Counted from the stretch's first letter, positions 28,285 through 55,280 are shown. The stretch is 64,000 nucleotides of DNA from Phytoactinopolyspora halotolerans (GCF_010550675.1 NZ_JAAGOA010000008.1:124001-188000), one strand, 5' to 3'. The notes: generated from the letters alone by a model not told the origin. Made by a program: numbers and translations.

Positions 28285-28706
28285 CGCATCCAAACATCGG
28301 CTACAGCCACCACGACTTCAGCTTGCCGGGCGCGGTCGCAATCGCCGGCCGGCAGAAGCGCTGCCGGCTCGAGTCATGCGGGCGCTGGTTCGTCGCTACG
28401 GTGATCACGCAGCGGTACTGCTCACCTGCCTGCCGCGCGTGCGCATGTCGAGCGCAATCCGACGAGCCCGCCGCGCGCACGTGCGAGTGCTGTACGCGCA
28501 CACTGAGCGGGCACCGTGCGGATGCGCGGTTCTGCTCGCCGGCATGCCGCGCGCGGGCATGGCGGATGCGCACGCGCGTGGCCCGTAGGGGTGCATGCGC
28601 AGCTTGCGGCGCCAGCCTGGCCGGGCGACGCACCGATGCCACGTTCTGCTCGTCGGCATGTCGCGCACGCGCATTCCGAGCAGCGCGCTCGGCGGGCGGC
28701 AGGTGA
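28281..28706 (+). CDS. Triple zinc-finger protein preceding the relaxase
   Basis: 141 residues. Three copies of one finger, each CxxC then about 14 residues then CSxAC: 'CRLESCGRWFV...YCSPACRACACR', 'CECCTRTLSGHRADARFCSP' with 'ACRARAWRMR', and 'CAACGASLAGRRTDATFCSS' with 'ACRARAFRAAR'. (The first is Cys-x4-Cys.) The arrangement resembles short treble-clef fingers with a basic helix after the last Cys pair, suited to binding nucleic acid. Coupled by ATGA to the zinc ribbon and nine bases from the relaxase start. It is a candidate relaxosome accessory or oriT-binding protein (inference). Confidence 0.8.
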   Translation: MTHPNIGYSHHDFSLPGAVAIAGRQKRCRLESCGRWFVATVITQRYCSPACRACACRAQSDEPAARTCECCTRTLSGHRADARFCSPACRARAWRMRTRVARRGACAACGASLAGRRTDATFCSSACRARAFRAARSAGGR

Positions 28707-28714
28707 GCCGTCCA

Positions 28715-31700
28715 ATGATGTCGATTAAGAAGCTACACGCCGGCGACGGCTACACCTACCTCCTGCGCGGCGTGGCCGACGGCGAAGGCATGCCCGGGGT
28801 GATCTCCCCGATGACGCGCTACTACGCCGAGTCCGGCCATCCACCCGGCCGCTGGATGGGCACTGGGCTGGTTGGACTCGCCAACGGAGACGGCGTTCCC
28901 GCCGGATCCATGGTCAATGAGCAGCAGATGGAACGGCTGTTCAAGGACGGCACCGATCCGGTCACGGCGGTAGCGCTGGGTCAGCGCTATGCGCATCCGA
29001 GATCGTGGCGTGAACGCGCCGACGCGCGTATCCGCGCCCTTCCCGCCACGCTCACAGCCGATGAGCGCGCCGCGCGCACCTGCCAGATCGAGGACGAGGA
29101 ACGCCGCCGCCCGACCCGTCGGCCGGTGGCCGGGTTCGACTGCGTGTTCTCTCCGCCGAAATCGGTGAGCGTGCTGTGGGCGCTCACCGATCACCAGACG
29201 CGCGTTCAGATCGCTCGCGCGCACCATGACGCCGTCGATCAGGTGCTGCGCGTGATGGAACGCGACGTCGCACGGACCCGAATCGGCACCGACGGCGTCG
29301 CCCAGGTTCAGACCCGCGGGGTTGTCGCCACCGCTTTCGATCACTATGACTCCCGCGCGGGGGACCCGCAGCTGCACACGCACGTGGTGATCGCCAATCG
29401 GGTGCAAGGACCCGACGGCAAGTGGCGCACCCTAGACTCGCGCGGCTCGCTGTTCCCTGCGGCCGTGGCAATGAGCGAGTTGTATGACACGCTGATTGCA
29501 GACCGGCTCACCGCCGACCTTGGCCTCGGGTGGGAACGCCGCGGCACACCGGTCAAGCCGAAGAACCAGACCTGGGAGATCATCGGAGTGCCGGACGAGC
29601 TGATCACCGAGTTCTCCCAGCGTGCGGCAAGCATCGAAGCCGTCAAAGACGACCTGATCCAGGCATACCGGGAGGCGCACGATCACGACCCGGACGACGC
29701 CACCATCGTCCGGCTGCGCCAGCAGGCCACCTACACCACACGGCCGGACAAGACGCTGCGCTCCCTACAGCAGATGATCGCCGGCTGGCGCACCCGCGCC
29801 AGCCGTGTACTCAAGCGCGACTCCGCGCAGTGGGCAACCTCCGTGGTCGCCCACAGCCGCACGTCGCCCGCGCCGCCGGAGGACGCGCAACGCCTGGTCG
29901 AGGAGTTCGCGCATGCAGCGCTCGCCGAACTCAGCGAGCAACGATCAACCTGGCGCACCTGGAACGTCCGCGCGGCCGCTGCTCGGGCATCGATGCCCCA
30001 TCGCATAGCGAGCGCCGACGAACGACACGCGCTGATCGACGCCATCACGCAGCGGGTGGCCGAGCTCTCGGTATGCATCACCCCACCCGAGCTCACCACC
30101 ACGCCGACGGTATTCCGCCGAGCTGACGGCAGCTCGGCGTTCACGCGCGACCACGACGACGTATTCACCACCACCGAGATCCTCGCCGCCGAAGACCGAC
30201 TACTCGCCGCTGCCGACTCCCTGACGGCTCCCGTCGTCGATCTCGACGTGGTCACCCACGCGACCGGTTCAACACCGCCAGGCGCGACGGTGTTGTCTGA
30301 CGACCAGGCCGCTGCCGTCGCCCAGATCACGACCAGCCAGCGCGTCGTCGACGTACTGGTCGGGCCGGCGGGAAGCGGCAAGACCACCGCCCTTGCATCA
30401 TTGCGCGCAGCATGGGAGGCACAGCACGGACCCGGCAGCGTGATCGGGCTAGCGCCCTCCGCCGCAGCGGCCGAAGTCCTACGGCACAGCCTGGCCGTGA
30501 CCACGGAGAACACCGCGAAATGGCTACACGAATCCACCGGCCTCGCGGCACATCGTCGCCGCGAGCGATACCAAGACTTACTCGCTCGCCGCGCCGCCCT
30601 CCCCGCACACGCGGCCGATCGGCTCGATACCGCGCTCGCCGCCATCGCCCATGACCAGCGCCAGTGGTCATTCCAACCCGGACAACTGGTGATCGTCGAC
30701 GAAGCCACGCTCGCCGGCACCCTCACCCTCGACGCGCTACGAGCCCAAGCCGAACATGCCGGAGCCAAGCTGCTGCTGGTCGGCGACTGGGCACAGCTGT
30801 CGTCCGTGGAGGCAGGAGGCGCATTCGGCATGCTCGTGCGCGCCCGCGGCGACCGTGTCCCCGAGCTGACCGGTGCACGGCGCTTCGCCCACGACTGGGA
30901 ACGCGCCGCCAGCATCCAACTCCGCACCGGTGACACCGACGTCATCAAGACCTACCTCGCGCACGACCGCATTCGCGACGGCGACACCGAACAGATCCTC
31001 AAATCCGTCTACCAAGCCTGGCTCGCCGACGAAAACGCCGGACAGCGGTCTCTGCTCGTCGCCGCCGATGCCGCCACCGTGCGCGAGCTCAACCTACGCG
31101 CCCGCGCCGACCGCATCGCCAACGGCGCCGTCACACGATCTGGGGCGATTCTGCACGACGGCACGCATGCAGGGCGAGGCGACCGCGTCGTCACCCGCCA
31201 CAACGACCGCAGCCTCGCCAGCGGACCTCACTCGTGGGTGAAGAACGGCGACCAATGGACCGTCACACGCCAACACTGCGACGGGGCACTCACCGTCAAG
31301 CGCGCACACGGCGGCGCCATAATCAAGCTGCCCGCCGCCTACGTGGCCGAGCATGTCGAACTTGCCTACGCCTCCACCGTGTACAGGGCGCAAGGATCGA
31401 CAGTTGATACATGCCACGCCGTCGTCACCGAAACCGACATGACCCGCGAGACCCTCTACGTCGCCATGACCCGCGGCCGCCTCACCAACACCGCTCACGT
31501 CGTCACCGACCAACTCGACGAAGAGATCTGCGACGACGAGACACACCTCGCCCGCGACATCCTCATCCGCGTCATGCAGCGCAGCGGCGCCGAACTCTCC
31601 GCCCACGAAACCATCGCCGCCGAACAAGACCAAGCCGTCAGCATCGCGAAACTCGCAGCCGAGTACGAGACTCTTGCTCGCGAAGCCGCCACCAGCTACT

Positions 31701-32368
31701 GGACCGGATTACTCGCAGCCCCTCTGTTCTCGCGTACGGCCGCCGATCCGACACACTCGCCGTCCTACCCCGCGTTCGTCGCTGCCGTTCGCCACGCTGA
31801 AGCCGCCGGACTCGAGGCCAACCATCTGGTCCCTCGTCTCGCCACTACCGACGACCTCCGAGCGGCCGATGATCCACTCGATGTGCTCAGCCGCAGGATC
31901 GCACAGGTCACCGATCACGCGGCAGCCACCCGGCCAGACCGAACGCGGCACCGCCTCATAGCCGAGCTCATCCCAACCGCCACGCACGTCAGCGATCCCG
32001 ACATGGAGCGCGCACTACGCGACCGCGAAACACTGCTCGAAAATCGCGCCGCCACGCTCACCCGCGAAGTGCTCGCCCAGCAGCCACCATGGCTAACCGA
32101 ACTTGGCCCAACACCCTCCGATAGGCGGCTGCGCGAGCAATGGCTACAACACCTCACCACCGTCGCCGTCTACCGCGCCCGCCACGGCCTCCGAGGCGAC
32201 GACGCACTCGGCGACGAGCACAACCAAAGCTGGTCATACCGCGCAGACCGCCGCCGCGCCCGACACGCGATCGAAGCTGCTCGTCACATCAGCGACACAC
32301 CCGACTCGCTAAGAGCTTCGCGGAGGCAGCGACACCGAGCGCGGCCCAACAACACGACTTCATTGTGA
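28715..32368 (+). CDS. MobF-type relaxase-helicase (TrwC/TraI-like)
   Basis: 1217 residues. The ATG at 28715 has AGGTGAG seven bases upstream; the frame opens earlier within the zinc-finger gene. The relaxase domain includes the N-terminal tyrosines ('TRYYAESGHPPGRWMG', about 34-49), 'FDCVFSPPKSVSVLWAL' and the HUH metal site 'DPQLHTHVVIANRV' (His221, His223). A RecD/TraI-type helicase follows: Walker A 'GPAGSGKT' (550-557), 'LVIVDEATLAGTLTLDALRA' (Walker B), 'KLLLVGDWAQLSSVEAGGAF', and 'AYASTVYRAQGSTVD' with 'LYVAMTRGR'. The enzyme nicks oriT, stays bound to the 5' end through tyrosine, and unwinds the strand sent to the recipient. The C-terminus is helical and charged. Confidence 0.95.
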   Translation: MMSIKKLHAGDGYTYLLRGVADGEGMPGVISPMTRYYAESGHPPGRWMGTGLVGLANGDGVPAGSMVNEQQMERLFKDGTDPVTAVALGQRYAHPRSWRERADARIRALPATLTADERAARTCQIEDEERRRPTRRPVAGFDCVFSPPKSVSVLWALTDHQTRVQIARAHHDAVDQVLRVMERDVARTRIGTDGVAQVQTRGVVATAFDHYDSRAGDPQLHTHVVIANRVQGPDGKWRTLDSRGSLFPAAVAMSELYDTLIADRLTADLGLGWERRGTPVKPKNQTWEIIGVPDELITEFSQRAASIEAVKDDLIQAYREAHDHDPDDATIVRLRQQATYTTRPDKTLRSLQQMIAGWRTRASRVLKRDSAQWATSVVAHSRTSPAPPEDAQRLVEEFAHAALAELSEQRSTWRTWNVRAAAARASMPHRIASADERHALIDAITQRVAELSVCITPPELTTTPTVFRRADGSSAFTRDHDDVFTTTEILAAEDRLLAAADSLTAPVVDLDVVTHATGSTPPGATVLSDDQAAAVAQITTSQRVVDVLVGPAGSGKTTALASLRAAWEAQHGPGSVIGLAPSAAAAEVLRHSLAVTTENTAKWLHESTGLAAHRRRERYQDLLARRAALPAHAADRLDTALAAIAHDQRQWSFQPGQLVIVDEATLAGTLTLDALRAQAEHAGAKLLLVGDWAQLSSVEAGGAFGMLVRARGDRVPELTGARRFAHDWERAASIQLRTGDTDVIKTYLAHDRIRDGDTEQILKSVYQAWLADENAGQRSLLVAADAATVRELNLRARADRIANGAVTRSGAILHDGTHAGRGDRVVTRHNDRSLASGPHSWVKNGDQWTVTRQHCDGALTVKRAHGGAIIKLPAAYVAEHVELAYASTVYRAQGSTVDTCHAVVTETDMTRETLYVAMTRGRLTNTAHVVTDQLDEEICDDETHLARDILIRVMQRSGAELSAHETIAAEQDQAVSIAKLAAEYETLAREAATSYWTGLLAAPLFSRTAADPTHSPSYPAFVAAVRHAEAAGLEANHLVPRLATTDDLRAADDPLDVLSRRIAQVTDHAAATRPDRTRHRLIAELIPTATHVSDPDMERALRDRETLLENRAATLTREVLAQQPPWLTELGPTPSDRRLREQWLQHLTTVAVYRARHGLRGDDALGDEHNQSWSYRADRRRARHAIEAARHISDTPDSLRASRRQRHRARPNNTTSL

Positions 32369-32671: not shown

Positions 32672-35600
32672 TCAGTCTGCGTAACGAGCTTTCTGCAGAA
32701 ATTCCGTTGCGAGTTTTGCCGGCCTGGCCCCGACACTAAAGCAGTCATCCTTAGAGCATGCTATGGAGCCGGGCGGAGGGTTCATAGTTCGGCAGCTTAG
32801 GCACATCCATCCAGGCGCAGCTCGACACGCGATTTCCTTCAGAATCACAATCATATCCGGCGGCCTGGCGCGGACGATGCGCCTCATCGCAGCCTCTTGG
32901 ACGTAACCGTCGGGATCATCGAGGAGCTTTCGGTAGTCTTGACTTAACTCGTCACCGTCCATCGGCTCAGTCATGTGCGCAGCTACAGCCCGCAGCACGG
33001 GGTCTTCGCTGTCGATCCAGCACTGGGGTTCGGGGCCGTTCGCAAAAGATGCCAGAGTGGCAGCGCCGAGTCGTTCATGGTCCGTGCTCGAGATCAGGTC
33101 GGGCAGAAGGTCACGCAGCATAGGTAGTGCGTGTTCAGCTACCGTTGCCGCTCCCCATAGGGATCTGGACGCGAAACGCGCCTGGCCGCGGCCCAGCGTG
33201 AACATGTGCATCAGTATTCGCACAGCCTTCTCGTGGTCCGGGACTGCGGTCCAGTCCGGATCGACGCGCTTATGGGCATTGTCGAAGAGCGCAAAGTACG
33301 GATCGATGCTTTCCCAACGCTCCATGCGTGCGCGTGCAAGATTGGCCTGGGCTGCTAGTAGCTCGTTCTCGAATCCGTACAAGGAAGCAGTTAGTCCGAT
33401 GAGCTCACGAAGCACGTCATCGGGCTCCCTATGGAGGTGCATCACTGCACCGTCATTCATCTCGATCGTCTCCATGAAATCGGCAAGATCGTCCAGCGCG
33501 ACCGCTTGCTTCGTTGTGAGCTCGCTCTTCTTAGTGTTGTCGGATACGAGTTGCAGGAAGTGCCCGAACAAGGAATCGTCCCAGTCTTCAAACCATTGTG
33601 GAAGGTCAAATCCGGTTCGCTTCGATGCGCTCGTGTCCCGAATGGCTCTAACCTCATCGTCGAACCCCCGATCGGCGAGCAACTGCAGAAGTTCGCGTTG
33701 AAGCTTCAGTGGAGCACCTATTGCTCGATCGACCACCGACGTCGCAGCACCAGTTACCTGATCCAGCAGCGCTTCAGCGGCCTTCGCTTGTGTTTTGATC
33801 AGGCTGCCATCTACGTACCAGTCAGAAATCTCATTGCCGCTCGACGATGGTCGTTTCGGTAGTGATTTCAGGGCGAGCACGTCCTTTAGTAGCGCCGTGT
33901 GCTCCGCGCCGGCCGACTCCGCGTGGTACCGAAGCTCGAGCGATGCATGCGCAACGCGAGTGTGTTCGACACTGTGCTTCGCGGCGGCCGCCTCAGCAGA
34001 TGCACGGAGTTCGACAGGGATCGGCAAGTCGAGTAGGTCCTGCCAACTCTGCCAGCCTTCTTCCGTTCCGGTGGACACGTGTGAGATCAAGGTCTCGGCG
34101 ATTTGCTGGTACGCGGCGCTGTCGAGCTTGACTCCTTCCTTGACGGCCTGAACGAGCACCTTCGCAAGCTCGGCGTCCTCGGGGTGCGCTTTTAGTGCGT
34201 GGACAGCGGCCTCTACGACCCTAGCCTCAAGCGTGCACGCCAGCAGGAGTGGCTCATGTTGCCGCGCGACCACCCGCGTCTCGACCCATGCCGCGATTTC
34301 GTCCTTGTGCGAGACAATCCGAATGGCGTCGCCGATCTCGGCGAACAACGCGATCCGGGGGACGACGGACTCCTCGGCACACATCACGAAGATGCCGCTC
34401 TCGTCGAAGAACCGTATCGCGTCCCGGGCCGCAGTCATTGCGTGAGCAGGTGCGAGGCCCCATGGTTCGCGCAGGTCGGTCGCGACCGCCTCGACCACAG
34501 CCTCGACGGTCGCGTGCCCCTGACTGTTCAGTATTGCAGCGGCCTCACTCGTGAATGCGTGCATGCTCGCCTCTTTCAACGCTGTGCCCGACAAGGATCC
34601 GAAGGTGCGATCATCACCGCGTCGTATCTCACGGCGGGCAATGACATCTTCTATGACGGCCTTGAGAATCTTGGCGCGTCGCGTCGGAAGTTCTGGAGTC
34701 GAACGCCGAGCGGCAAGTAGGGCCAGCACGATAGGCATGAGTGGTGTTTCGCGGAGAAGGCTGTCCTGGTTTAGCGCCGAACGCACCCATATCTCGCGTT
34801 CTGATACCCAGCTCGCGTTTTCCGGGACAGCGAGTTGGATCGCGGAGGCCCTCAGGACTGCGGTCACCGTGCTATCCGTGTTCGACGGAGGGCCTAGCCG
34901 TAGGCTCGGCCATCCGAGAGTTGCCGCATGGCCGTAGGCGACATCCCGGGTGGCGACCACCACACAAACCCCTTCCGGCAGGTCCGCAACGAAGCTAGCT
35001 ATCTCACTTACCACGTCTGCTCGGGCGTCATAGGTCTCGTCGAGCGAGTCGAGAAGAAGGGCTACGCGGTCGCCGTGGTCGAGGCGTTCATTGATCTCCC
35101 TGGTCAGCTCATCCCGGTCAGTTGGCCTAGCCTCGCGCACTGCAACCTCGATGAGGCGGTCCCGAAAGCTCGTGGAGGAACGTGAGTTATTGATATCGCG
35201 TAGCGATGCCCGCACAGGAAGGGGCAGCGTCGAATCAAAGACGAGTTGGGCAGCGAGGCGCTTCAGCGCCGTCGACTTCCCACCGCCAGGCGGGCCTGTT
35301 AGGACGATACGGCCGCGCCGGAGGAGGGCCCAGATCAGCTCGCTGTCGCTACGGTCATCGTCAGGGTGAGTACCGACGTGTACGACCGCATCTGCATCCT
35401 TCAGCGGAAGGCTAGGCAACTCGGCACCTAACGCACGTAGGTCGATCTCTGAGCCCTCGCGCTCCGAGCGATCCCTGTACCGTTCCAAAACCTGCCGCCG
35501 CGACTCAAGTACAGCCGCCGGCAAGCTCCCAACGCAGCCGACCTCAATGCCCTCGCCGCACAAAGCATCCAGCCAGCCGGAGAGCGTGTACCCGCCGCGG

Positions 35601-36274
35601 AGCCGAGCGGTGCGACCCGAGATCCGCAGCAGGGCAGTCCAAGCATCTTTGGCTGTGTCGTAGCCACGATCGGGGACGACCTGACGCAGGTGGCTCATCG
35701 CGAGCTGTGACCCCGGCTCCTCGATCCTCTCAACCTGCAGTTCCCAGATCGCCGCGCATCTCAGGACGAGCTCACGTTGCGCATCATCCAAGTCGCCGAG
35801 CAACCCTCGCACCTTCTTCAAGGCCTCCGCCTCGACGCGCGTCGGGGAGCCCGGTAGATCTGTCCGTCCGCGATCAAGCGCTCGCTGGAGCGCTCTCATT
35901 CTCCCGCTCAGGGTGCCGGCAACAATCACAAGTCGATCCTTGCCCGGATCGAGGCCGACCTTGGCCGCTTCTACCCATTGGGTCACCGCCTTCTCGAGAG
36001 GCCTTCCAGCATCAAGACTCAGCTTCGCCTGTACGAGGGCGCGCCACCCCGACTCGAAATCGATCCTGATGTCATCAACTGGATCGTCCGTCTCCAGCGA
36101 GACGGCTGCCACCTTTGCGTAGGCGGGAGGAACACCAGTCCCCGACAGAGCCTCGCCAGCGAACCCACATGCAACTACATACGCGGCAACCCCGCGGCGG
36201 TACTCAACTCCCGCATCGCCCGAAGCCCCAGCAATAGGGCCAGTTCTCGCTGTTGAGTTGCCGATCACGAACAA
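32672..36274 (-). CDS. STAND NTPase with nuclease-like N-terminus (Avs-like)
   Basis: 1200 residues (TTG 36274; GTG two codons on is possible). The N-terminal ~110 residues, 'VEYRRGVAAYVVACGFAG', then 'IRIDFESGWRALVQAKLSL' (Asp72 and QAK 82-84), look like a PD-(D/E)xK nuclease of the Cap4/Mrr type. A NACHT/STAND core follows: Walker A 'GPPGGGKS' (327-334), Walker B 'ALLLDSLDE' (405-413), then helical winged-helix and repeat regions to the end. The last ~45 residues hold 'WMCLSCRTMNPPPGSIACSK' plus 'DDC', a RanBP2-like zinc finger. Avs-type proteins detect conserved phage proteins through the C-terminal sensor and then activate the N-terminal effector; that role is inferred from architecture. 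Confidence 0.8.
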   Translation of the reverse strand: MFVIGNSTARTGPIAGASGDAGVEYRRGVAAYVVACGFAGEALSGTGVPPAYAKVAAVSLETDDPVDDIRIDFESGWRALVQAKLSLDAGRPLEKAVTQWVEAAKVGLDPGKDRLVIVAGTLSGRMRALQRALDRGRTDLPGSPTRVEAEALKKVRGLLGDLDDAQRELVLRCAAIWELQVERIEEPGSQLAMSHLRQVVPDRGYDTAKDAWTALLRISGRTARLRGGYTLSGWLDALCGEGIEVGCVGSLPAAVLESRRQVLERYRDRSEREGSEIDLRALGAELPSLPLKDADAVVHVGTHPDDDRSDSELIWALLRRGRIVLTGPPGGGKSTALKRLAAQLVFDSTLPLPVRASLRDINNSRSSTSFRDRLIEVAVREARPTDRDELTREINERLDHGDRVALLLDSLDETYDARADVVSEIASFVADLPEGVCVVVATRDVAYGHAATLGWPSLRLGPPSNTDSTVTAVLRASAIQLAVPENASWVSEREIWVRSALNQDSLLRETPLMPIVLALLAARRSTPELPTRRAKILKAVIEDVIARREIRRGDDRTFGSLSGTALKEASMHAFTSEAAAILNSQGHATVEAVVEAVATDLREPWGLAPAHAMTAARDAIRFFDESGIFVMCAEESVVPRIALFAEIGDAIRIVSHKDEIAAWVETRVVARQHEPLLLACTLEARVVEAAVHALKAHPEDAELAKVLVQAVKEGVKLDSAAYQQIAETLISHVSTGTEEGWQSWQDLLDLPIPVELRASAEAAAAKHSVEHTRVAHASLELRYHAESAGAEHTALLKDVLALKSLPKRPSSSGNEISDWYVDGSLIKTQAKAAEALLDQVTGAATSVVDRAIGAPLKLQRELLQLLADRGFDDEVRAIRDTSASKRTGFDLPQWFEDWDDSLFGHFLQLVSDNTKKSELTTKQAVALDDLADFMETIEMNDGAVMHLHREPDDVLRELIGLTASLYGFENELLAAQANLARARMERWESIDPYFALFDNAHKRVDPDWTAVPDHEKAVRILMHMFTLGRGQARFASRSLWGAATVAEHALPMLRDLLPDLISSTDHERLGAATLASFANGPEPQCWIDSEDPVLRAVAAHMTEPMDGDELSQDYRKLLDDPDGYVQEAAMRRIVRARPPDMIVILKEIACRAAPGWMCLSCRTMNPPPGSIACSKDDCFSVGARPAKLATEFLQKARYAD

Positions 36275-36937: not shown

Positions 36938-37663
36938 ATGCCGAGCGTGCTTTCTGGGGTCGGTCCAGCACCGCCCGAGCTGATCAGCTGGCTGCGGTCA
37001 TGGTCACGCCAGGACGCGGTGTTGGACCAGAGCTTCGACCTCAACGTGGCGTGGTGGAACGCGCGAATCATCGGCCTGCCGGGTGGCCCCGTAAAGAGTG
37101 CCGATGACTCGCTAGACCGCGGGCCGATATCCCGTAGATATCTGTTTGGCCTAGGAGAGGAGGCCGTCACCGACGACACCGGCGAAGCGGCGCTACGTCT
37201 TCTCTGGCATACGCTTCTGTGGGGAACGGGGAACTCCAACCGTGGCAACCGCCGACGCATTGACTCAATCAGAGTGGACCCCGCCGGCATGGGTCGGCTC
37301 CTGCACTCCGCGGCTGCCACGGCCCGCACCGATCCGGCTGAGGCCTTCCGCCTCCTTCGGCGGCGCCGAGCGACTGTGAAGGGTTTCGGACCAGCGTTCT
37401 TCACGAAGTTCCTCTACTTCGCCGGCGGCGGAGACCCCCGCCACCCGTGCCTGATCGTCGACTCTCGCGTTCAACGCACGCTCCACACCTGCACCGGAGG
37501 GCAGCACGCGCTGCTAAAACCGGACTTCGGGTACCGCGTCGATGCCTACATCGCGGCCCTTACCGTGCTCGAGACCTGGGCAGCCGAACTTTCCGTCGCC
37601 GGCGACGAAGTCGAACGATGGGCATTTGCACACACAGGCCCAAGGACAGAGCACCGCCCCTGA
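36938..37663 (+). CDS. OGG-fold protein (8-oxoguanine DNA glycosylase-like)
   Basis: 241 residues. It matches the prokaryotic OGG-fold family rather than classical OGG1: 'LLWHTLLWGTGNSNRGNRRR', 'AFRLLRRRRATVKGFGPAFF' (helix-hairpin-helix 'VKGFGPAFFTKFLYFAGGG') and 'HPCLIVDSRVQRTLH' with the Asp expected near the active site. Such proteins occur in defence islands; base-excision activity is not proven. A divergent position from the STAND gene suggests a separate unit. The start codon lacks a strong ribosome site and the region upstream is unusually AT-rich (around 36900-36935), consistent with a promoter and leaderless or weak initiation. Confidence 0.75.
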   Translation: MPSVLSGVGPAPPELISWLRSWSRQDAVLDQSFDLNVAWWNARIIGLPGGPVKSADDSLDRGPISRRYLFGLGEEAVTDDTGEAALRLLWHTLLWGTGNSNRGNRRRIDSIRVDPAGMGRLLHSAAATARTDPAEAFRLLRRRRATVKGFGPAFFTKFLYFAGGGDPRHPCLIVDSRVQRTLHTCTGGQHALLKPDFGYRVDAYIAALTVLETWAAELSVAGDEVERWAFAHTGPRTEHRP

Positions 37664-38011: not shown

Positions 38012-38167
38012 ATGGACAACGCCGCATCCAATCCTTCTGTGCTGGATCAACTGCTCGAACCCGTCGAACTTTCTGAGCCGTTGGGCGAGTACGACGCGAC
38101 TACCCAGACATGGTCGCACCGCAATACTCCGAAGATGTCCCCACAGAAGCATCACCAGGAGCAGTGA
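38012..38167 (+). CDS. Graspetide-type RiPP precursor peptide (candidate)
   Basis: 51 residues; ATG at 38012 with AAGGAG six bases upstream. The leader-like half is acidic and hydrophobic ('NPSVLDQLLEPVELSEPLG'). It is followed by 'EYDATTQTW', which matches the YD-x-x-TQ block seen in actinobacterial ATP-grasp target peptides, and a core-like tail with Thr, Ser, Lys, Glu and several His/Gln ('SHRNTPKMSPQKHHQEQ'). An ATP-grasp ligase gene follows 126 bp on. In graspetides the ligase joins Ser/Thr or Lys side chains to Asp/Glu side chains. Which residues are linked here cannot be told: acidic residues are few in the tail, so the ring may involve Asp/Glu near the YD block. Confidence 0.7.
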   Translation: MDNAASNPSVLDQLLEPVELSEPLGEYDATTQTWSHRNTPKMSPQKHHQEQ

Positions 38168-38293
38168 GTCGTATCCGTCTGAAAGGCGCGAGGCGGCCAC
38201 CTAAGCCGCCTCGCGCCCGATCGTTTCGCGACGACGATTCTCGACTCCTTGGTCAAGTGGGTGGGCACTGTCCAGTCAGCGGAAGTGGATCAC

Positions 38294-39244
38294 GTGACTG
38301 TTCTACTGGCAACGCATCGACGGGCCACCGAGATCGATCGAGTGATCGACGAACTGAATGCTCGGAAAATTCGCTTCTGCCGGGTGAACATGGCGCCTGG
38401 GGAGGGGGCCTTCTCAGCACAGCTGTCCAATGGGAGAGCCAAGGTGACGCTCTCGACCGACGGTGGTCAGTTCGCCATAGATGAATTCACCCACGGCTGG
38501 TATCACCAACCCGCGCTCGTTGAACCCAAGCAGATCTCCGCATGCAAAGGCGCATCAGGCGAGCAGGCCGTGTTGACTTCGTTTAGCAACGGCTGGGAGG
38601 CCGTTCTTGAGATGGCCCCAGTTGTCTGGTTGAACGACGCGCGCAGCGTTGCCGAGGGTTCGAACAAGCTAAGACAATTGCTAGCAGCCGTTGAGGTTGG
38701 ACTACCAGTCCCCACCACGGTGGTAGGGAACCTACTGTCGCCCGCCCAACGCTGGCTTCGTGGTCTGCCCGTGGTTGCCAAGAATCTGACCTCGCCACAT
38801 CAAGTTTGGAACACCGAACGCACGGTTTCATTCGTCACTAAGCGCACCGACCTCGGCAACATTGGCGAGCATGCCCTCGCTGCCGTACCCGTTATTCTTC
38901 AACATGAAGTACGGCCGCTACGCGAGCATCGAGTTGTCGTAGTCTGTGACCAGGTGTTCTCAGCCGCGATTCCGATCGACAAACGACACGGACATGTCGA
39001 TGTTCGCCTTGCTCCCGATAGTCTCCGGCAGTACTCGAAATCTCTAATCGAGCCGACCGTCAAAGATCAACTTATCGAACTCATGCGGCGGTTCAAGTTG
39101 AACTACTGCTCGGCAGATCTGATCGAATCGGATGACGGCGCGTGGAGTTTCCTGGAGTTGAACACCTGCGGTGCGTGGTGGTGGATCGACGACATCCATG
39201 CTGGCAGTGTCACGCACGCGCTCACCGATTTCCTTTCTGGGTGA
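38294..39244 (+). CDS. ATP-grasp peptide maturase (MvdD/TgmB-like)
   Basis: 316 residues from GTG 38294 (GGAAG nine bases upstream); the frame is open to 38249. Matching the MvdD/TgmB family in order: 'VTVLLATHRRATEIDRVIDE', 'VVWLNDARSVAEGSNKLRQL' (family pattern WxND...K...QL), 'GLPVPTTVVGN', 'LPVVAKNL' (ATP-binding lysine), 'EHRVVVVCDQVFSAAIPID', and 'WSFLELNTCGAWWWIDD' with the metal-binding Glu and Asn. Length is typical. The enzyme activates side-chain carboxylates of a precursor with ATP and forms omega-ester or amide links. The small gene upstream is its probable substrate. Confidence 0.88.
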   Translation: MTVLLATHRRATEIDRVIDELNARKIRFCRVNMAPGEGAFSAQLSNGRAKVTLSTDGGQFAIDEFTHGWYHQPALVEPKQISACKGASGEQAVLTSFSNGWEAVLEMAPVVWLNDARSVAEGSNKLRQLLAAVEVGLPVPTTVVGNLLSPAQRWLRGLPVVAKNLTSPHQVWNTERTVSFVTKRTDLGNIGEHALAAVPVILQHEVRPLREHRVVVVCDQVFSAAIPIDKRHGHVDVRLAPDSLRQYSKSLIEPTVKDQLIELMRRFKLNYCSADLIESDDGAWSFLELNTCGAWWWIDDIHAGSVTHALTDFLSG

Positions 39245-40195
39245 TCAAGCCTCGTCAACCTCTCGACGCGACGGCATGCGAACGTGTGGAAGGGTATTTT
39301 CATCGATAGTTCGGGGCACGGAACTCAGTGACGGAACAACCGTCTCTAGCCAAGAGAGACTCAGCCTTCGAGCAGGGCAACGGTGTGGACCGACTCCGAA
39401 GGTGGTATGAGCCGCACCGGGAAGCGCGACCGATGCCGCCGCCACGAAGCAGAGTTGGACCGGCACCCGAGGATCCGTCCGCGTGTCAAACCGAAACAGC
39501 CCAAGGAGGGGCGTCGAGTGGGCGAGACAAGTTTCTATACCACCTTTGCCGCTCGCGTGTTCTGCACAGGCAGAAATCCAGACAGCCGCGCCCGCCAACG
39601 TTTCAAGGACCGCGATCGTGATCGCTGCAACCAAGAACATGACCTGTCTTTGCGCCGACGGGCTATCGCCAGTATCTGCCGTACAGCGCTCGAACAGATC
39701 GCGACAGGGTTGACTCTGCGCAATCAACTCGGCAACGTTATTTTGGATGGATCGGCCGTCAAGGATTGCGGTATGCAAGTCAACGATAAACTCGTTCGCT
39801 AGCTCGACGTCGAATATCGAACGCCAGAGGTCGTAGGTCCGCGTGCGCAGAGTGCCGCGACATGGTGAGTCGGGAGTTGACGTCATACGTGCGGACTCAA
39901 GGAGGCGCGAACCAAACGCGGCATAGAAAGCTTGACGCTGCACTTTGTGTGCATGCCCGTCACTCGTCAGAAGGAAGCCTGAGTGATCGGCCGAGGGCGC
40001 AGCAGAATAGGTGCCTTCGTTCTTCACCACTAGCGTGATGCCACGCTTTGTCAGGGCCGCAACCATCCGTGGTTCACGTACGTGAACCACATCGAACTGC
40101 CTTGCCAGACTTCGCCATACGTCGATCGTAGCGGTGTTACCCGGCAACAAATCGACCGTACCGATCCTGAGGGGAATTGCGTCGTCGACCGTCAC
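39245..40195 (-). CDS. Cytochrome P450-like protein, short and divergent
   Basis: 316 residues from a GTG that overlaps the upstream stop (GTGA); a GTG six bases earlier is possible. The haem-binding loop is present as 'TTFGVGPHRCPARRLSLSWL' with the Cys thiolate, and 'LTSDGHAHKVQRQAFYAAFG' fits the C-helix that contacts haem. The usual I-helix AGxDT pattern is replaced ('AITIAVLETLAGAAVW'), and the expected K-helix ExxR reads 'ETCL'. It is some 80 residues shorter than normal P450s. It may be a modified P450 with a special reaction, or a non-catalytic partner. The gene ends one base from the ATP-grasp gene on the opposite strand. Confidence 0.75.
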   Translation of the reverse strand: MTVDDAIPLRIGTVDLLPGNTATIDVWRSLARQFDVVHVREPRMVAALTKRGITLVVKNEGTYSAAPSADHSGFLLTSDGHAHKVQRQAFYAAFGSRLLESARMTSTPDSPCRGTLRTRTYDLWRSIFDVELANEFIVDLHTAILDGRSIQNNVAELIAQSQPCRDLFERCTADTGDSPSAQRQVMFLVAAITIAVLETLAGAAVWISACAEHASGKGGIETCLAHSTPLLGLFRFDTRTDPRVPVQLCFVAAASVALPGAAHTTFGVGPHRCPARRLSLSWLETVVPSLSSVPRTIDENTLPHVRMPSRREVDEA

Positions 40196-40785
40196 TGCCA
40201 CTGATCCTGTCTGATAAATGAGATCGAGATCGCATCTCTTGGCGTGGCTGTCTGGTTCCTCGTGCCCGAGTGCCAGAGGCCGCCAGTGAACATGATCGCG
40301 TCCCCGGGTTCAGCCTCCACGAGCAACTGACCTGGGCACACGACCGCCGGATCCTCTGGAACATGCCGAGGGCGTTGGAGATGAGATTGGGGCAGGAAGC
40401 GCGTCGTGCCGGACAAGGGTGTGAATGCGACAAGCGGGATGATTGCCGTGACAAGTCGCACCACCGAGCGCGTAACGTCTGCATCGTCGGGATGCATCGT
40501 TTGCTCGCCGTACCCGGGTAGTGGCGCGCGATAGCGCGCGCCCAGGTAGGTTGCTTCGCCTGCGAGGGCATCGTCGGCCACTTCGCGTAGCCTTCGACTG
40601 AAGAGGATCTTGCACAACTCTTCCTCGAATGGGCTGAGATCCTCGATGTGCAACTTCTTTGTGGATTTCCAACCACCTCGCTCGAGAGCGTTGCGCCGAA
40701 GGAGTTCGGTGACGTTCATGGACGGAGGTTGAATCACTCGTCGCATTACGGCAATGCCGTCGAGCAGGAGTTCACTGCCCACCAC
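40192..40785 (-). CDS. PhyH-like Fe(II)/2-oxoglutarate dioxygenase
   Basis: 197 residues. The double-stranded beta-helix signatures are present: 'GYGEQTMHPDDADV' with the HxD iron ligands (His98, Asp100), 'VAFTPLSGTTRFLPQSHLQR' (the 'NG-L-PGSH' region) and 'PGDAIMFTGGLWHSGTRN' with distal His172, then 'RDAISISFI' carrying the 2-oxoglutarate arginine. It is somewhat short but seems complete. Its start overlaps the end of the oxygenase gene upstream, and its stop overlaps the P450 start, so all three are one translation-coupled operon. Hydroxylation or desaturation of a peptide or amino acid is a plausible reaction. Confidence 0.85.
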   Translation of the reverse strand: MVGSELLLDGIAVMRRVIQPPSMNVTELLRRNALERGGWKSTKKLHIEDLSPFEEELCKILFSRRLREVADDALAGEATYLGARYRAPLPGYGEQTMHPDDADVTRSVVRLVTAIIPLVAFTPLSGTTRFLPQSHLQRPRHVPEDPAVVCPGQLLVEAEPGDAIMFTGGLWHSGTRNQTATPRDAISISFIRQDQWQ

Positions 40786-41323
40786 GAGCCACCTTCGGTG
40801 CGAAGGTCACAGTCAGCACTTGCGAGGTTACGTTGACTGGCGGACGATGGTGTGGCACAGCAGCGCCCCGTAGAAACAAGAATCTATCTGCCGACAAGGT
40901 CAATGATTCGCCCCTCGGAAACGGCTCTAGTGCCGCCAGTTCCAGCAGATCTGCGGAGTTCAGTGCAATCAATTCAGGGCACACGACCAAGGGCTCGGTC
41001 ACGTGGCCGACCGCGAGCAAGCCCGTAAGGACGGCATCTGGTCGATCGACGTGTAGTGCGGCAAAGTCGCCCTCGGTGTAGGTGTTTAGCCACATGCTTT
41101 GGAGGTTCAGAGCCAATCCTGTCTGCTGCTGAAGATCAGCGGCGGAGTGTGGGATCACCGAAGCGACGCGTGTGGTGGTCATCCGTGCAGCACCAATGAC
41201 AGAGCCGTCCTCGCGCGCAGAAGGCGAATCTTCGCGGAGTTGGACCACTTCGGCGGCGAGATCCAGCGTTGGAGCCCCACCGAGCGCTGGGCCCCACCAG
41301 TATGGCTTCACGTCGGTCTGCAC
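40772..41323 (-). CDS. Second 2OG-Fe(II) oxygenase-like protein
   Basis: 183 residues from GTG 41323 (GGGAG upstream); the frame is open to 41386. 'MWLNTYTEGDFAALHVDRPD' gives an HxD pair (His91, Asp93), followed by 'LTGLLAVGHVTEPLVVCPEL' and 'LFLRGAAVPHHRPPVN' with a distal histidine (158 or 159), in the spacing of prolyl-4-hydroxylase-type 2OG oxygenases. Overall identity to known families cannot be judged by eye. First gene of the three-gene oxidative operon. Confidence 0.65.
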   Translation of the reverse strand: MQTDVKPYWWGPALGGAPTLDLAAEVVQLREDSPSAREDGSVIGAARMTTTRVASVIPHSAADLQQQTGLALNLQSMWLNTYTEGDFAALHVDRPDAVLTGLLAVGHVTEPLVVCPELIALNSADLLELAALEPFPRGESLTLSADRFLFLRGAAVPHHRPPVNVTSQVLTVTFAPKVARGGQ

Positions 41324-47547: not shown

Positions 47548-48579
47548 TCATGACAACCCCGGACGCGCTATTGTGTGGGCTTCGCGCGGCCTTCGGTTCG
47601 CCGGACCCAACGCGCCCGCAGATCGTGCGGTCCGCGGACGGTCGTCGCTAATCCGTCGTGGTAGCCGCTGGCCGTAGGCCAGACCGTCGCGGATAGTCGT
47701 GTGCACCTCACTAGCCGTGCAACCGGCCACACCGATGTGCCGCGACGCTGCTTCGTGCAACACCTGCCAAGCGGCGTCTGCCGTGAGTTCGCCGCCGCCG
47801 ACGAGGCGCCCAAGAGTCCGAGCGGCTCGCAGCAATGTCCAATGCCGATCTCCGACCTGCGCGGCTGCGACTTCCTTCGCTTCGTTGGTCACGATGGCCT
47901 GCACGTACGCGCCCGCCCGGTCGCTCGGCAGCCGCATCGGCGGTCCAGGCACCGGTGCAGGCGGCGGAGTCAGTGCGTGCAGCAGCCAAGCCGGCAGCTC
48001 GGCGACAGTCGTGTCGCGCACGACCCGATACGATCCATCGGGTCGGGTCGATCCGGCGCCGACAACGAAACCGCCATGAGCGCGTGTGTCGATCCGCCAC
48101 CCGACCGACCCGGCAGTGTTGCGCAGCTGCACCCCGAACGGAGCACGAAAGTACAGGTGGAGACCGCTTGGTGTGGCCACAGTGTAGGTGTCTGTCGGTG
48201 GCTCGGCGCCTGCCTCTGCGGCCAGCATCGCCAGCGCATCCCCGCCATCACGGGCACCGGCGAACCGTTGTGGCGGCACACCTTCACCGCGTCGATCCAA
48301 ATCGAGAACAACCAGGCCAGACGGTCCCGTGGCGATTCCCACGTTCCGCCGTCCGGTATCCGGCCACCACCGGCGGATCTGCTCCACGTCATTGCTGGCG
48401 CGTTCCTGCCATCCCTTGATCATCGGTGTCTTGCCGCCAGGTGCGACTGGGAACACGCACCAGCCGTGCTGCGCCGCCTCGGTTGCCGCCACAAGGTAAG
48501 GATTCCGCTGTGTTGTGCCGTTGTCCGGCCGCGTCCGACGCACAGCCACAGCGGATGCATCCGCGTTGTATGTGTTCAC
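47548..48579 (-). CDS. Bifunctional primase-polymerase (prim-pol) domain protein
   Basis: 343 residues. 'GWCVFPVAPGGKTPMIKGWQ' then 'IRRWWPDTGRRNVGIATGPS' and the catalytic 'GLVVLDLDRRGEG' (DxD) are the prim-pol signature, followed by 'YTVATPSGLHLYFRAPFGVQ' with the conserved His and 'GWRIDTRAHGGFVVGAGST'. The C-terminal region is helical ('VGGGELTADAAWQVLHEAAS'), in the position of a primase C-terminal domain. It primes or fills in DNA on mobile elements. Coupled to the DUF4913 gene by ATGA. Confidence 0.9.
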   Translation of the reverse strand: MNTYNADASAVAVRRTRPDNGTTQRNPYLVAATEAAQHGWCVFPVAPGGKTPMIKGWQERASNDVEQIRRWWPDTGRRNVGIATGPSGLVVLDLDRRGEGVPPQRFAGARDGGDALAMLAAEAGAEPPTDTYTVATPSGLHLYFRAPFGVQLRNTAGSVGWRIDTRAHGGFVVGAGSTRPDGSYRVVRDTTVAELPAWLLHALTPPPAPVPGPPMRLPSDRAGAYVQAIVTNEAKEVAAAQVGDRHWTLLRAARTLGRLVGGGELTADAAWQVLHEAASRHIGVAGCTASEVHTTIRDGLAYGQRLPRRISDDRPRTARSAGALGPANRRPREAHTIARPGLS

Positions 48580-49474: not shown

Positions 49475-50569
49475 ATGGTGTCCGATATTCACGATGATGA
49501 AGCCTCGGAGGCGCTAACCGAGTCGGCGCCAATCCCACCTGGCGAACGCAAACTCATCACCCAGTCCTACGACATGTCCATAAACACACTAATCGAACAA
49601 TGGAATGACGAAACGCTCGTTATACCGGAAATTCAACGTGAGTATGTATGGGAAACTTCAAAAGCCAGCCGCTTGATTGAGTCACTTCTCTTGAATGTTC
49701 CCATTCCTGTCCTCTACTTCGCCGAGGCGCCGGAAGAGAAGTATGAGGTTATTGACGGACATCAAAGAGTCGCTTCGATCGCAAGGTATATCGATAACCA
49801 GTACGCCCTCACTGGACTTAAGGTCCTCAATGATCCTGAGCATATGAGAAAGCGCTTTCATCAACTACCCGCTAGCGAACAGCGGCGAATAAGGACAAGA
49901 GTCATTCGCGCAATCGTCATTACCGATGAATCGCACCCAACGATGAAATTCGAAGTATTCGAGCGCCTAAATACAGGATCAATTGCACTGAATGCACAGG
50001 AGATCCGCAACAGCACACATCGTGGACCTTTCATGGCGCTCGTAAAGTCACTAGTACACGATGAAACATTCAGGAAGGCCGTCGGGCAGAAGAGTCCCCG
50101 CAAAAGGATGGCTGATAATGAGCTAATTATTCGCTACTTTGCACTCCGAGACAGACTAGAAGAATACCGCCCGCCACTTCCTCGATTCCTGAACAAATAC
50201 TGCAGTGCAGCCAACCAGTTCGGTAACGATAAGCTCGAGGTGTTAGCAAGCGACTTCAAACTGGCCGTACGAAACGTCTACGCAGTCTTCGGCGAAAATT
50301 CATTTAGGCTAACGGACTCACAGGGGAATCGGATTGACCGCTCCCTGAACCGAGCACTGGCAGAAACTCAGCTTTGCACTTTGAGTGACGCCACGCACGA
50401 GGACGTCGCCTTCTTGCGCGAGAAACTCACTCATGATCTCGGCAGGATACACTCTCAGGCTGACTTCTTGGACGATATTCAACGGGCAACGAGCGATAGG
50501 AGCCGTACGTTGGGGAGGATGTATCGTTATCGGGATGCCTTAACAGCCGCTGGCCTGAGGCTCCGCTGA
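49475..50569 (+). CDS. DUF262 (ParB/Srx-like) domain protein
   Basis: 364 residues; ATG preceded by AGAGGAAC. The DUF262 N-terminal domain is clear: 'MSINTLIEQWNDETLVIPEI' then 'QREYVWE' (54-60), 'SRLIESLLLNVPIPVLYFAE' and the catalytic-type 'EVIDGHQRVASIARYID' (DGHQR 94-98; the usual form is DGQQR). 'KFEVFERLNTGSIALNAQEI' is also family-typical. Related GmrS-type domains use this site for NTP-dependent nuclease activity against phage DNA. Five bases separate it from a HEPN gene. Both have far lower GC and different codon use than the surroundings, a sign of recent transfer. Confidence 0.88.
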   Translation: MVSDIHDDEASEALTESAPIPPGERKLITQSYDMSINTLIEQWNDETLVIPEIQREYVWETSKASRLIESLLLNVPIPVLYFAEAPEEKYEVIDGHQRVASIARYIDNQYALTGLKVLNDPEHMRKRFHQLPASEQRRIRTRVIRAIVITDESHPTMKFEVFERLNTGSIALNAQEIRNSTHRGPFMALVKSLVHDETFRKAVGQKSPRKRMADNELIIRYFALRDRLEEYRPPLPRFLNKYCSAANQFGNDKLEVLASDFKLAVRNVYAVFGENSFRLTDSQGNRIDRSLNRALAETQLCTLSDATHEDVAFLREKLTHDLGRIHSQADFLDDIQRATSDRSRTLGRMYRYRDALTAAGLRLR

Positions 50570-50574
50570 ATCCG

Positions 50575-51273
50575 ATGGCGTCCAGGGCTCTCGGAGAATT
50601 GATAGCTGGCCTAGATGAAGTGCGCTCATTAAGGTCCCACGTACCGTACCGAAAATCCGTACCACGGGAAACTGCACATCATTGGCGGGCCGCGCGTATC
50701 GCTAACAGGCGCGCATGCGTGGTCCTTCTCTGCAGTCATTACGAACGTTACGTCTATGGAATTAACGAGGAGGCTATCGACTTCCTGAACTCTTGCAGCC
50801 TACTCTCAGAACGTATCCCTGAATCGGTTCGTCTACTTCAAGTAAAACTGCCGATCGATGAACTGTCGCGCCAGCAGTGGGATTCGCGCGCGCCAAAGCT
50901 ATACGAATTCGCACTGAACCATGCTGCGCATTGGTCACCGGGCGCGCCAGTCACAAATCTCGATGCTGCCGCGATCTTAAGTTGGATGAAGTCTCCCAAA
51001 CCAAGGGATGTAAAGAGATACTTTCTATGCTTCGGTGAAGAGGATATCTTTTCGCGCATCACCCGATCGGAAAACACGCGACGCGACCTCTTCCGGCATC
51101 TACAGGGACTTGTGGACTCAAGGAACGGAATCGCTCACGGTGATTCGACAGTGCAACCGCTGCCAACTGACATAACGGAATATTGCTCGACTGTCTTGAA
51201 GTTCGCCACGCGTGTAGACCGCGTGTTCTCCCGCCTGCTGGCAAGGATCGCCCGAACTAGCCATCCCTGGTGA
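50575..51273 (+). CDS. HEPN domain protein (MAE_28990/RiboL-PSP-like)
   Basis: 232 residues, all-helical in appearance. 'RRACVVLLCSHYERYVYGIN' near residue 45 is the first HEPN helix pair, and 'HLQGLVDSRNGIAHGD' carries the R-x4-H RNase motif (Arg183, His188). This pattern matches the MAE_28990/MAE_18760-like HEPN group. HEPN proteins cut RNA on activation; paired with a DUF262 protein it would be an abortive-infection-type effector with the partner as sensor, or both act together (inference). Ends at a sharp return to high GC. Confidence 0.8.
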   Translation: MASRALGELIAGLDEVRSLRSHVPYRKSVPRETAHHWRAARIANRRACVVLLCSHYERYVYGINEEAIDFLNSCSLLSERIPESVRLLQVKLPIDELSRQQWDSRAPKLYEFALNHAAHWSPGAPVTNLDAAAILSWMKSPKPRDVKRYFLCFGEEDIFSRITRSENTRRDLFRHLQGLVDSRNGIAHGDSTVQPLPTDITEYCSTVLKFATRVDRVFSRLLARIARTSHPW

Positions 51274-53793: not shown

Positions 53794-55280
53794 CGTGCGT
53801 CCGCCTTCATTCGCTGGTCGGTATCGAAGAGCTTGGTCTCGATGTCGGACAGGACGTTGAGCACAACATGGGCGCTGGTGCCGACGCGCCACAGGCCTTC
53901 GCCGGTGTTGAGTTCGGGGAGAAGTTCGGCCTGGGTGGAGGTCAGACCGAGCAGTTCCGTGCTTTGGGCGAGCTGGTCGGTCTCTTGCCGGTACATGATC
54001 CGGGTCGAGCAGTCCGCAAGTAGGCCCGCGGCGAGCGCCCGAGCCTCGGAACCCGCGTCGCCGATGGCATCCAGGTCGGAGAGACGGTGGATGACGGCCA
54101 TGTTGGCCAGGCCCCAAGCTCGGGAGAGTTTCCACTGTGCTTGCATGCGGCGCAGCAGTGCCGTCACAGCCATCAAACGCCAGGCCTCGTCGTAGATGAT
54201 CCAGCGCTGGCCGGCGGTCGGATCCTGCAGTGCACCTTCCATCCACGATGAGGCACAGGTCATGATGACCGGCAGATTCTCGTTGTCCTCACCGAACGCG
54301 GACATGTCCAGGCTGACCATCGCCGCGTCGGGATCGAAGCGCGTCGTCGACGGCCCGTCGAAGAGCCCGGCAAGGTCACCGTTGATCATGCGTTGCAGGG
54401 CATGTCCGACCCGGCGTCCGTCATCACGCAACACATCGACCTCGTCGGCGGACAGATCAGTGGCCAGCGGGCTCGGCGCCAACAGGTGCTGCACGACGTA
54501 CGGCAGCGTGGGCGTGGCAGTTGATCGCTCGGCGACGGTCAACGCGGTCGTGAGCGCGGTGTGCTCAACCGGGGCGAGCGCGTCGCCGAGGACGGTCTCG
54601 CAGATGGCGCCCATGAGTTGGCGGCGGCGGGTCTGCACGAGTGTGCGCCACTCGGCCTTGTCCAGACTGGTCGGGCGGATGCCTTCGTCGAGCGGATTGA
54701 GCCGCGTGGGTAGGCCGGGGCCGAGGCGTATCACGGTTCCGTCGGCGGCATCGACCACCGGTGTCCATTCGCCTTTGACGTCTGCGGGGATGTAGACCTT
54801 GCGGCCGAACGGCAACGACCGCCAGGCCAGCGCCTTGGCCAGCGTCGATTTGCCTTGGCCGATCACACCAGCGAGCAGCACGTTCGGGTTCGTGATGGCG
54901 CGTCGACGGTACAGCTCCCACGGGTCGAAGCAGAACGCGCCCCCGGAAAGCAGGTCCTGGCCGATGTACATGCCGGCCGGGCCGAGGCCGCGGTCGGCGA
55001 TGAACGGATACAGCACGGCCAGGCTGGCGGTCGTGGCGTAGTGCGGCTGCACACGCAGCCGCAGCCGAGAACGACCCGCCGACGGGCCCGGTTCACCCGC
55101 ACGTGACAGGCGTGGGACGTCCCACATCGCGCGGTCGGCATGCCGAGCAGCGCGACGGGTGGCGCGCTCTTCCGACTGACGCTCTCGGATCAGTCGGCGG
55201 GCCGCCGTGCGGGCGCGTCGTCGCTCGCGGCGGCTCGTACCTGCTGGAGTGAACACTGATCCGGCATGAAACGACCTCAC
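53790..55280 (-). CDS. VirB4-like secretion ATPase
   Basis: 496 residues from GTG 55280, which overlaps the SCO6880-like stop (GTGA) and has GGGGAGG seven bases upstream. A basic N-terminal region is followed by 'NVLLAGVIGQGKSTLAKALA' (Walker A, about 136), 'RKVYIPADVKGEWTPVVDAA', 'RWIIYDEAWRLMAVTALLRR' (Walker B, about 360) and 'GLANMAVIHRLSDLDAIGDA'. The N-terminal VirB4 channel domain is missing; in actinobacteria this part is supplied by the SCO6880-like partner. It powers substrate transfer or pilus dynamics. Confidence 0.88.
   Translation of the reverse strand: MRSFHAGSVFTPAGTSRRERRRARTAARRLIRERQSEERATRRAARHADRAMWDVPRLSRAGEPGPSAGRSRLRLRVQPHYATTASLAVLYPFIADRGLGPAGMYIGQDLLSGGAFCFDPWELYRRRAITNPNVLLAGVIGQGKSTLAKALAWRSLPFGRKVYIPADVKGEWTPVVDAADGTVIRLGPGLPTRLNPLDEGIRPTSLDKAEWRTLVQTRRRQLMGAICETVLGDALAPVEHTALTTALTVAERSTATPTLPYVVQHLLAPSPLATDLSADEVDVLRDDGRRVGHALQRMINGDLAGLFDGPSTTRFDPDAAMVSLDMSAFGEDNENLPVIMTCASSWMEGALQDPTAGQRWIIYDEAWRLMAVTALLRRMQAQWKLSRAWGLANMAVIHRLSDLDAIGDAGSEARALAAGLLADCSTRIMYRQETDQLAQSTELLGLTSTQAELLPELNTGEGLWRVGTSAHVVLNVLSDIETKLFDTDQRMKADAR

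What the first reader, a model, noticed from the sequence alone, without database searches (positions are those of the whole stretch)
38012..41323. Graspetide locus facing a P450 / two-oxygenase operon: a possible oxidatively tailored omega-ester peptide pathway
Seen: a 51-residue peptide gene with a strong ribosome site and a YD-x-x-TQ block, then an MvdD/TgmB-like ATP-grasp ligase. The ligase gene ends one base from the end of a translation-coupled three-gene operon encoding a P450-like protein and two HxD...H iron oxygenases. Known: graspetides are made by such ligases, and most described clusters carry few tailoring enzymes. Inference: oxidation of the precursor (hydroxylation to make new ester donors, or ring oxidation) before or after ligation. 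The core-like tail has few acidic residues, so the ring pattern may be new.
Basis: partly seen in the sequence, partly recalled or inferred. Interest (0 to 1): 0.85.

Follow-up and report, generated by a model that had tools for sequence, protein, structure and literature searches.

The report
Graspetide-type peptide locus facing oxygenase operon
A mobile DNA element in an actinobacterium carries a small peptide gene with an enzyme that probably ties the peptide into a ring, end to end with three oxygenase-like genes, one of which belongs to an unnamed enzyme family found beside other peptide-modifying enzymes; an oxidised ring peptide is plausible, but the link between the two gene sets is not proven.

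Summary
A 51-aa ORF (38012-38167) with a good ribosome site and a YDATTQ block precedes a divergent graspetide synthetase (TIGR04187, E 1e-47, catalytic residues kept). The ligase stop abuts a minus-strand operon of three overlapping ORFs: a short P450-like protein (only the heme-ligand loop is statistically supported; ExxR absent), a PhyH-type Fe/2OG oxygenase, and an orphan HxD...H oxygenase with a predicted prolyl-hydroxylase fold. All five genes have lower G+C (56-61%) than the two flanking genes (65-66%), as one cassette in a conjugative element. The proposed co-occurrence test is negative: 34 neighbourhoods of distant ligase relatives (26-34% identity) lack these oxygenases, and no close relative was found in about 85,000 genomes. 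New positive evidence: the orphan oxygenase belongs to an unnamed family whose other members sit beside YcaO genes (Planobispora, with Nif11-leader peptide and ThcOx; a second actinobacterium, with a tandem oxygenase pair). Oxidised graspetides are already known (corallotide; SmaO/SmaX), so the idea is not new in kind, but this enzyme set appears new. Precursor identity rests on position, ribosome site and one six-residue block. Verdict: plausible, unproven new variant.

The parts
38012..38167 (+). Putative precursor peptide, 51 aa: MDNAASNPSVLDQLLEPVELSEPLGEYDATTQTWSHRNTPKMSPQKHHQEQ
   Evidence: ORF with AAGGAG ribosome site; YDxxTQ block shared with precursors of other ligase loci; no family hit; whole-precursor profile does not find it
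38185..38217 (+). Perfect 13-bp inverted repeat (GGCGCGAGGCGGC / GCCGCCTCGCGCC) between precursor and ligase; possible attenuator or mRNA-stability element
   Evidence: RNA fold -43.2 kcal/mol for 38168-38260, z -3.84, 0 of 200 shuffles; no T-run terminator there
38288..39244 (+). Graspetide-synthetase-like ATP-grasp ligase (start GTG 38288 likely; TTG 38249 possible)
   Evidence: TIGR04187 E 1.4e-47, 162 bits against cut-off 350; PDB 5ig9 E 1e-15; K127, K165, Q205, R215, D277, E290, N292 invariant in A2
39245..40201 (-). Short P450-like protein, 318 aa; heme-ligand loop FGVGPHRCPARR; no ExxR; about 20 residues missing before the Cys loop
   Evidence: hhalign probability 90% over 34 residues; blastp E 6e-8 to an actinobacterial P450 (L042) over the Cys loop; weak collinear P450 hits in PDB; no Pfam/NCBIfam hit; N-terminal 240 aa do not align above shuffles
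40192..40785 (-). PhyH-type Fe(II)/2OG oxygenase, 197 aa, H-P-D ... H with downstream R
   Evidence: Pfam PhyH E 5.7e-12; PDB kanamycin B dioxygenase E 2e-6 with conserved HxD, H and PR
40772..41323 (-). Orphan Fe/2OG-type oxygenase of an unnamed family (HVD ... PHxRPP); start GTG 41323 with GGGAG upstream
   Evidence: No Pfam/NCBIfam hit; alignments A1/A3 with Planobispora, Nonomuraea and G028 proteins, invariant H91, D93, H158, R160; AlphaFold2 pLDDT 75, Z 13.2 to PHD2/P4H structures

Best explanation
This is a small RiPP cassette carried by a conjugative element. Inferred steps: the 51-aa peptide is bound, probably through its central YDATTQ block, by the ATP-grasp ligase, which phosphorylates a side-chain carboxylate of the C-terminal tail (E50 is the only acid there) and joins it to a Ser, Thr or Lys side chain. 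K46-HHQ-E50 has the same K-x3-acid spacing as the KIVAD macrolactam of corallotide, so a single lactam or ester ring is the simplest product. Before or after ligation the PhyH protein and the orphan prolyl-hydroxylase-fold protein hydroxylate the peptide (Pro, Lys or Asp side chains are candidates). The P450-like protein is either an atypical heme oxidase or a binding partner. Shown: gene layout, ligase catalytic residues, oxygenase metal-binding residues, predicted fold of one oxygenase, YcaO linkage of its family. Inferred: that the peptide is the ligase's substrate, that the oxygenases act on it, and every ring and site. Component estimates: ligase acts on this peptide about 0.75; at least one oxygenase acts on it about 0.5.
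For: Ligase homology with all catalytic residues. Precursor position, ribosome site and YDxxTQ block. The orphan oxygenase family lies next to YcaO in Planobispora (with Nif11-leader peptide and ThcOx) and in G028. PhyH and orphan oxygenases keep HxD...H. The five genes are 56-61% G+C against 65-66% for the two flanking genes, with abutting stop codons at the convergent junction. Precedents: corallotide CorB/CorC and SmaO/SmaX (PMC13097080).
Against: No co-occurrence in the 34 retrieved ligase neighbourhoods. Opposite strands, so no shared transcript. Ligase far below the curated cut-off; precursor unlike any profile. The tail has one acid, unlike the usual Thr/Asp-rich cores. The P450-like protein lacks ExxR and is short. 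No transporter, protease or redox partner was recognised beside it. No close relatives exist, so purifying selection cannot be tested.
Confidence: 0.45

Rival explanations
1. A graspetide-type pair (precursor plus ligase) and an unrelated three-gene oxygenase operon that merely landed next to each other in the cargo region of a conjugative element.
For: Convergent orientation; no co-occurrence in any of the 34 retrieved ligase neighbourhoods; nearest PhyH relatives examined (four same-family genomes) lie in neighbourhoods that look catabolic from their ORF translations; the element carries mixed cargo.
Against: Family of the orphan oxygenase is linked to YcaO genes elsewhere; shared low G+C and exact abutment of stop codons.
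Confidence: 0.3
2. The ligase and oxygenases work together but the product is not a classical graspetide ring: as in the SmaO/SmaX pathway, the two 2OG-type enzymes oxidise Asp (for example D28) or another residue on the linear peptide, and the ligase makes a different amide.
For: SmaO/SmaX act on a linear precursor of a graspetide cluster (PMC13097080); tail is poor in acids; two Fe/2OG-type enzymes are encoded side by side.
Against: No sequence link to SmaO/SmaX could be tested; the ligase keeps graspetide synthetase residues.
Confidence: 0.12
3. The cassette is decaying: a short precursor with a lost core and a P450 losing its helices, kept only by recent transfer.
For: P450-like gene has the weakest coding score, lacks ExxR and is short; precursor lacks the RPWGLRF-type block and the Thr/Asp core.
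Against: All five frames are open; ligase and both non-heme oxygenases keep their catalytic residues; operon overlaps are intact.
Confidence: 0.13

Closest known systems
Graspetide synthetases TIGR04187 (SAV_5884/TgmB type) with TIGR04186 precursors
   Same: ATP-grasp ligase, catalytic residues, small gene directly upstream with a YDxxTQ-like block
   Different: 26-34% identity to relatives found; score 162 against cut-off 350; precursor shorter, without the RPWGLRF-like block and with one acid in the tail
Corallotide (group 15, Corallococcus): CorB ligase, CorC 2OG oxygenase, CorD beta-lactamase-like (PMC13097080)
   Same: TIGR04187 ligase with a divergent Fe/2OG oxygenase; a K-x3-acid stretch
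   Different: CorC is PF13640, neither oxygenase here hits it; no beta-lactamase recognised here; precursor here has one such stretch, not five repeats; P450-like and PhyH genes are extra
SmaO/SmaX oxygenase pair of a group 18 graspetide cluster (cited in PMC13097080; original paper not readable here)
   Same: Two oxygenases in a graspetide cluster
   Different: Sequence relationship untested; this set adds a P450-like protein
YcaO/ThcOx cluster with Nif11-leader precursor in Planobispora (L087-L089)
   Same: Contains a member of the same unnamed oxygenase family directly after the YcaO gene
   Different: YcaO/ThcOx chemistry instead of ATP-grasp ligation
CYP157 family P450s (ExxR-less; PMC3599690)
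   Same: No ExxR; heme loop FGVGPHRCPAR shared with the L042 P450, whose K-helix region reads DQVLW
   Different: About 80 residues shorter; no alignable similarity outside the heme loop
KanJ kanamycin B dioxygenase / PhyH family
   Same: Facial triad and downstream Arg
   Different: 197 aa against about 280; different context

Membership tests
Graspetide (omega-ester/amide RiPP) | ATP-grasp graspetide synthetase with catalytic residues | tested here: met
   homology and invariant K, R, D, E, N residues; score is below the curated TIGR04187 cut-off
Graspetide (omega-ester/amide RiPP) | Precursor recognised by a family model (TIGR04186) or by a profile of relatives' precursors | tested here: not met
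   no hit; only the YDxxTQ block is shared. Two of three precursors of relatives tested also miss TIGR04186, so this is weak evidence against
Graspetide (omega-ester/amide RiPP) | Core with Ser/Thr/Lys donors and Asp/Glu acceptors | tested here: inconclusive
   Donors T33, S35, T39, K41, S43, K46 but only one acceptor in the tail, E50
Graspetide (omega-ester/amide RiPP) | Side-chain ester or amide bond in the product | not testable with these tools
   Needs mass spectrometry
Oxidatively tailored graspetide | Oxygenase conserved with the ligase across relatives | tested here: not met
   none of 34 ligase neighbourhoods (about 10 kb each side, less at contig ends) has homologues of the three proteins; only distant relatives exist to test
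Cytochrome P450 | Cys heme-ligand loop FxxGxxxCxG/A | tested here: met
   FGVGPHRCPA
Cytochrome P450 | ExxR in the K helix | tested here: not met
   IETCLAHSTP aligned without gap to AEECLRYNGP of 6ldl (a weak alignment); CYP157 is a known exception (PMC3599690)
Cytochrome P450 | Pfam PF00067 match | tested here: not met
   No hit at E up to 1; single-sequence AlphaFold model unusable, pLDDT 37
PhyH Fe/2OG oxygenase | Pfam PhyH with HxD...H | tested here: met
Fe/2OG oxygenase, prolyl-hydroxylase-like fold (40772-41323) | Double-stranded beta-helix fold and HxD...H | tested here: met
   invariant H91, D93, H158; Z 13.2 to PHD2 and P4H. 2OG-binding residue not identified; the usual downstream Arg is not conserved

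The most novel reading that the evidence does not exclude
A graspetide pathway in which a shortened, ExxR-less P450-like protein serves as an atypical heme oxidase or a structural partner for two non-heme oxygenases, which oxidise the tail to create or modify the ring donors of a single-acid core; the orphan oxygenase would belong to a general RiPP hydroxylase family shared between YcaO and ATP-grasp pathways.
Probability: 0.12. Interest if true: 0.75.

Novelty: new variant of a known kind. Interest (0 to 1): 0.48.

Why it matters
Secondary tailoring of graspetides is described as understudied (PMC13097080). If the oxygenases act on the ligated peptide, this is a compact five-gene system for oxidised ring peptides. 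Independently of that, the unnamed oxygenase family (HxD...PHxRxP) found beside YcaO and ATP-grasp enzymes looks like a reusable peptide hydroxylase that no Pfam or NCBIfam model covered in these searches, and it is directly testable.

Tried and rejected
Close relatives of the ligase: none in IMG/VR or in about 85,000 species genomes, and none above 31% identity in plasmids. P450-like protein in 22 family genomes and 394 class genomes: only a 53-residue heme-loop match. Precursor in plasmids and own genome: chance hits only. Whole-precursor and block profiles from 12 relatives did not find the peptide. AlphaFold on the P450-like protein alone failed. PhyH relatives in four same-family genomes: neighbourhoods look catabolic, no peptide context seen. 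Wider search with the orphan-oxygenase profile in 251 genomes of the Planobispora family added only one more strong member, in a genome of the same genus. Promoter/terminator scan: nothing above chance. Original SmaO/SmaX paper not held. CorB/CorC sequences could not be fetched for direct comparison.

Full report
What is there. The window lies in contig C64 (268 kb) of a 7.3-Mb genome. Overlaps are 14 and 10 bases. Codon scores favour each annotated frame, most weakly for the P450-like gene. G+C of the five genes is 56.4, 57.3, 58.5, 59.9 and 60.7%, against about 65-66% for the flanking OGG-like gene and the large helicase-methylase. This fits one acquired cassette, though other parts of the element are also near 60%.

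Setting. Around it are a TrwC/MobF relaxase (28595-32368), a TraG/TraD coupling protein (52003-54246), an EccE-like protein, a primase-polymerase and Tad-like genes. The relaxase is 44-47% identical to its best actinobacterial plasmid relatives. The locus is therefore cargo of a conjugative element.

Ligase. TIGR04187 is the best family (E 1.4e-47, 162 bits, cut-off 350). Solved graspetide-type ligases match (5ig9 E 1e-15). In an alignment with ten relatives of 24-30% identity all catalytic positions are invariant. The nearest relative found is 34% identical and comes from the same taxonomic family.

Precursor. The 51-aa ORF has AAGGAG before its ATG. Precursors of other ligase loci often carry a Y-D-x-x-x-Q block, e.g. 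AYDEETQTG. The stricter Y[DE]xx[TS]Q occurs only in this ORF among 1164 in the window. But the profile of twelve relatives' precursors does not find it, it lacks their RPWGLRF-like block, and its tail has one acid (E50). Precursor identity is therefore probable, not shown. A perfect 13-bp hairpin lies between precursor and ligase, as would fit less ligase than precursor message (inference).

Oxygenases. The middle gene is a PhyH oxygenase with its metal triad and downstream Arg. The outer gene has no Pfam or NCBIfam hit. Relatives from Planobispora, Nonomuraea and an unnamed actinobacterium G028 share HxD...PHxRxP. A seven-sequence AlphaFold2 model has pLDDT 75 and matches prolyl hydroxylases and BesD-type enzymes at Z about 13; fold does not show substrate. 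The usual downstream 2OG-binding Arg is not conserved; an Arg two residues after the distal His is. The inner gene encodes a 318-aa protein whose only statistically supported P450 part is the heme-ligand loop (34 residues, hhalign 90%; blastp E 6e-8). In a weak collinear alignment to 6ldl the ExxR position reads TCLA and about 20 residues before the Cys loop are missing. Its N-terminal 240 residues do not align to P450s above shuffles. The L042 P450 it most resembles also lacks ExxR, as CYP157 proteins do (PMC3599690).

The new link. The relatives of the outer oxygenase are few, and their neighbourhoods are informative. In three Planobispora species it follows a ThcOx/SagB oxidase gene and a YcaO gene; in P. 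siamensis (L088), where Pfam was run, an upstream peptide carries a Nif11 leader. In G028 two tandem copies precede a short ORF and a YcaO gene. In Nonomuraea it follows a prolyl oligopeptidase gene. Two of the three independent settings outside the window are thus next to YcaO, which is uncommon in such genomes and often a RiPP enzyme (own knowledge). This supports, without proving, that the orphan oxygenase here also works on a peptide.

Thirty-four ligase neighbourhoods from other genomes, about 10 kb each side where the contig allows, were searched for homologues of the three operon proteins: none. Close relatives of this ligase were not found in the collections, so the test covers only distant relatives (26-34% identity) and cannot exclude a linkage limited to this lineage.

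Known work. PMC13097080 reports over 21,000 predicted graspetides, some with oxidative enzymes nearby, hydroxylation of a Lys isopeptide by CorC in corallotide, and cites SmaO/SmaX, which convert Asp to aminomalonate on a linear precursor. Oxidised graspetides are thus a known kind; the string P450 does not occur in that paper's main text. K46-HHQ-E50 here has the K-x3-acid spacing of corallotide's KIVAD; with one acid and several donors this could be chance.

Verdict. A divergent graspetide-type locus with a new neighbouring oxygenase set; joint function plausible (about 0.45), not shown.

Noticed in passing
L087-L089 (10001-10345), L041 (4959-6196), L090: Unnamed oxygenase family (no Pfam/NCBIfam hit) with HxD...PHxRxP, beside YcaO in Planobispora (Nif11-leader peptide, ThcOx, YcaO) and as a tandem pair beside YcaO in G028.
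   Followed up: partly
window 28595-32368, 52003-54246, 47548-48579: TrwC/MobF relaxase, TraG/TraD coupling protein and Prim-Pol primase mark a conjugative element around the finding.
   Followed up: partly
window 49475-51273: GmrSD-type restriction protein next to a RiboL-PSP-HEPN protein in a stretch of low G+C (about 49% at 49500-50000); likely defence cargo.
   Followed up: no
window 32672-36274: 1200-aa NACHT/AAA (STAND-like) protein, possibly a defence gene.
   Followed up: no
window 36938-37663: OGG-like putative 8-oxoguanine DNA glycosylase (PF21790, E 3e-55) just upstream of the precursor.
   Followed up: no
window 38185-38217: Perfect 13-bp hairpin between precursor and ligase without a T-run.
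   Followed up: yes
L061, L065, L067, L064: Ligase relatives preceded by a conserved 45-aa peptide with a double-glycine-type leader (ELTEAELGEVSGG) and a tail like GRMSVSWKIGGKPAEWVIS, unlike the YDxxTQ precursors.
   Followed up: no
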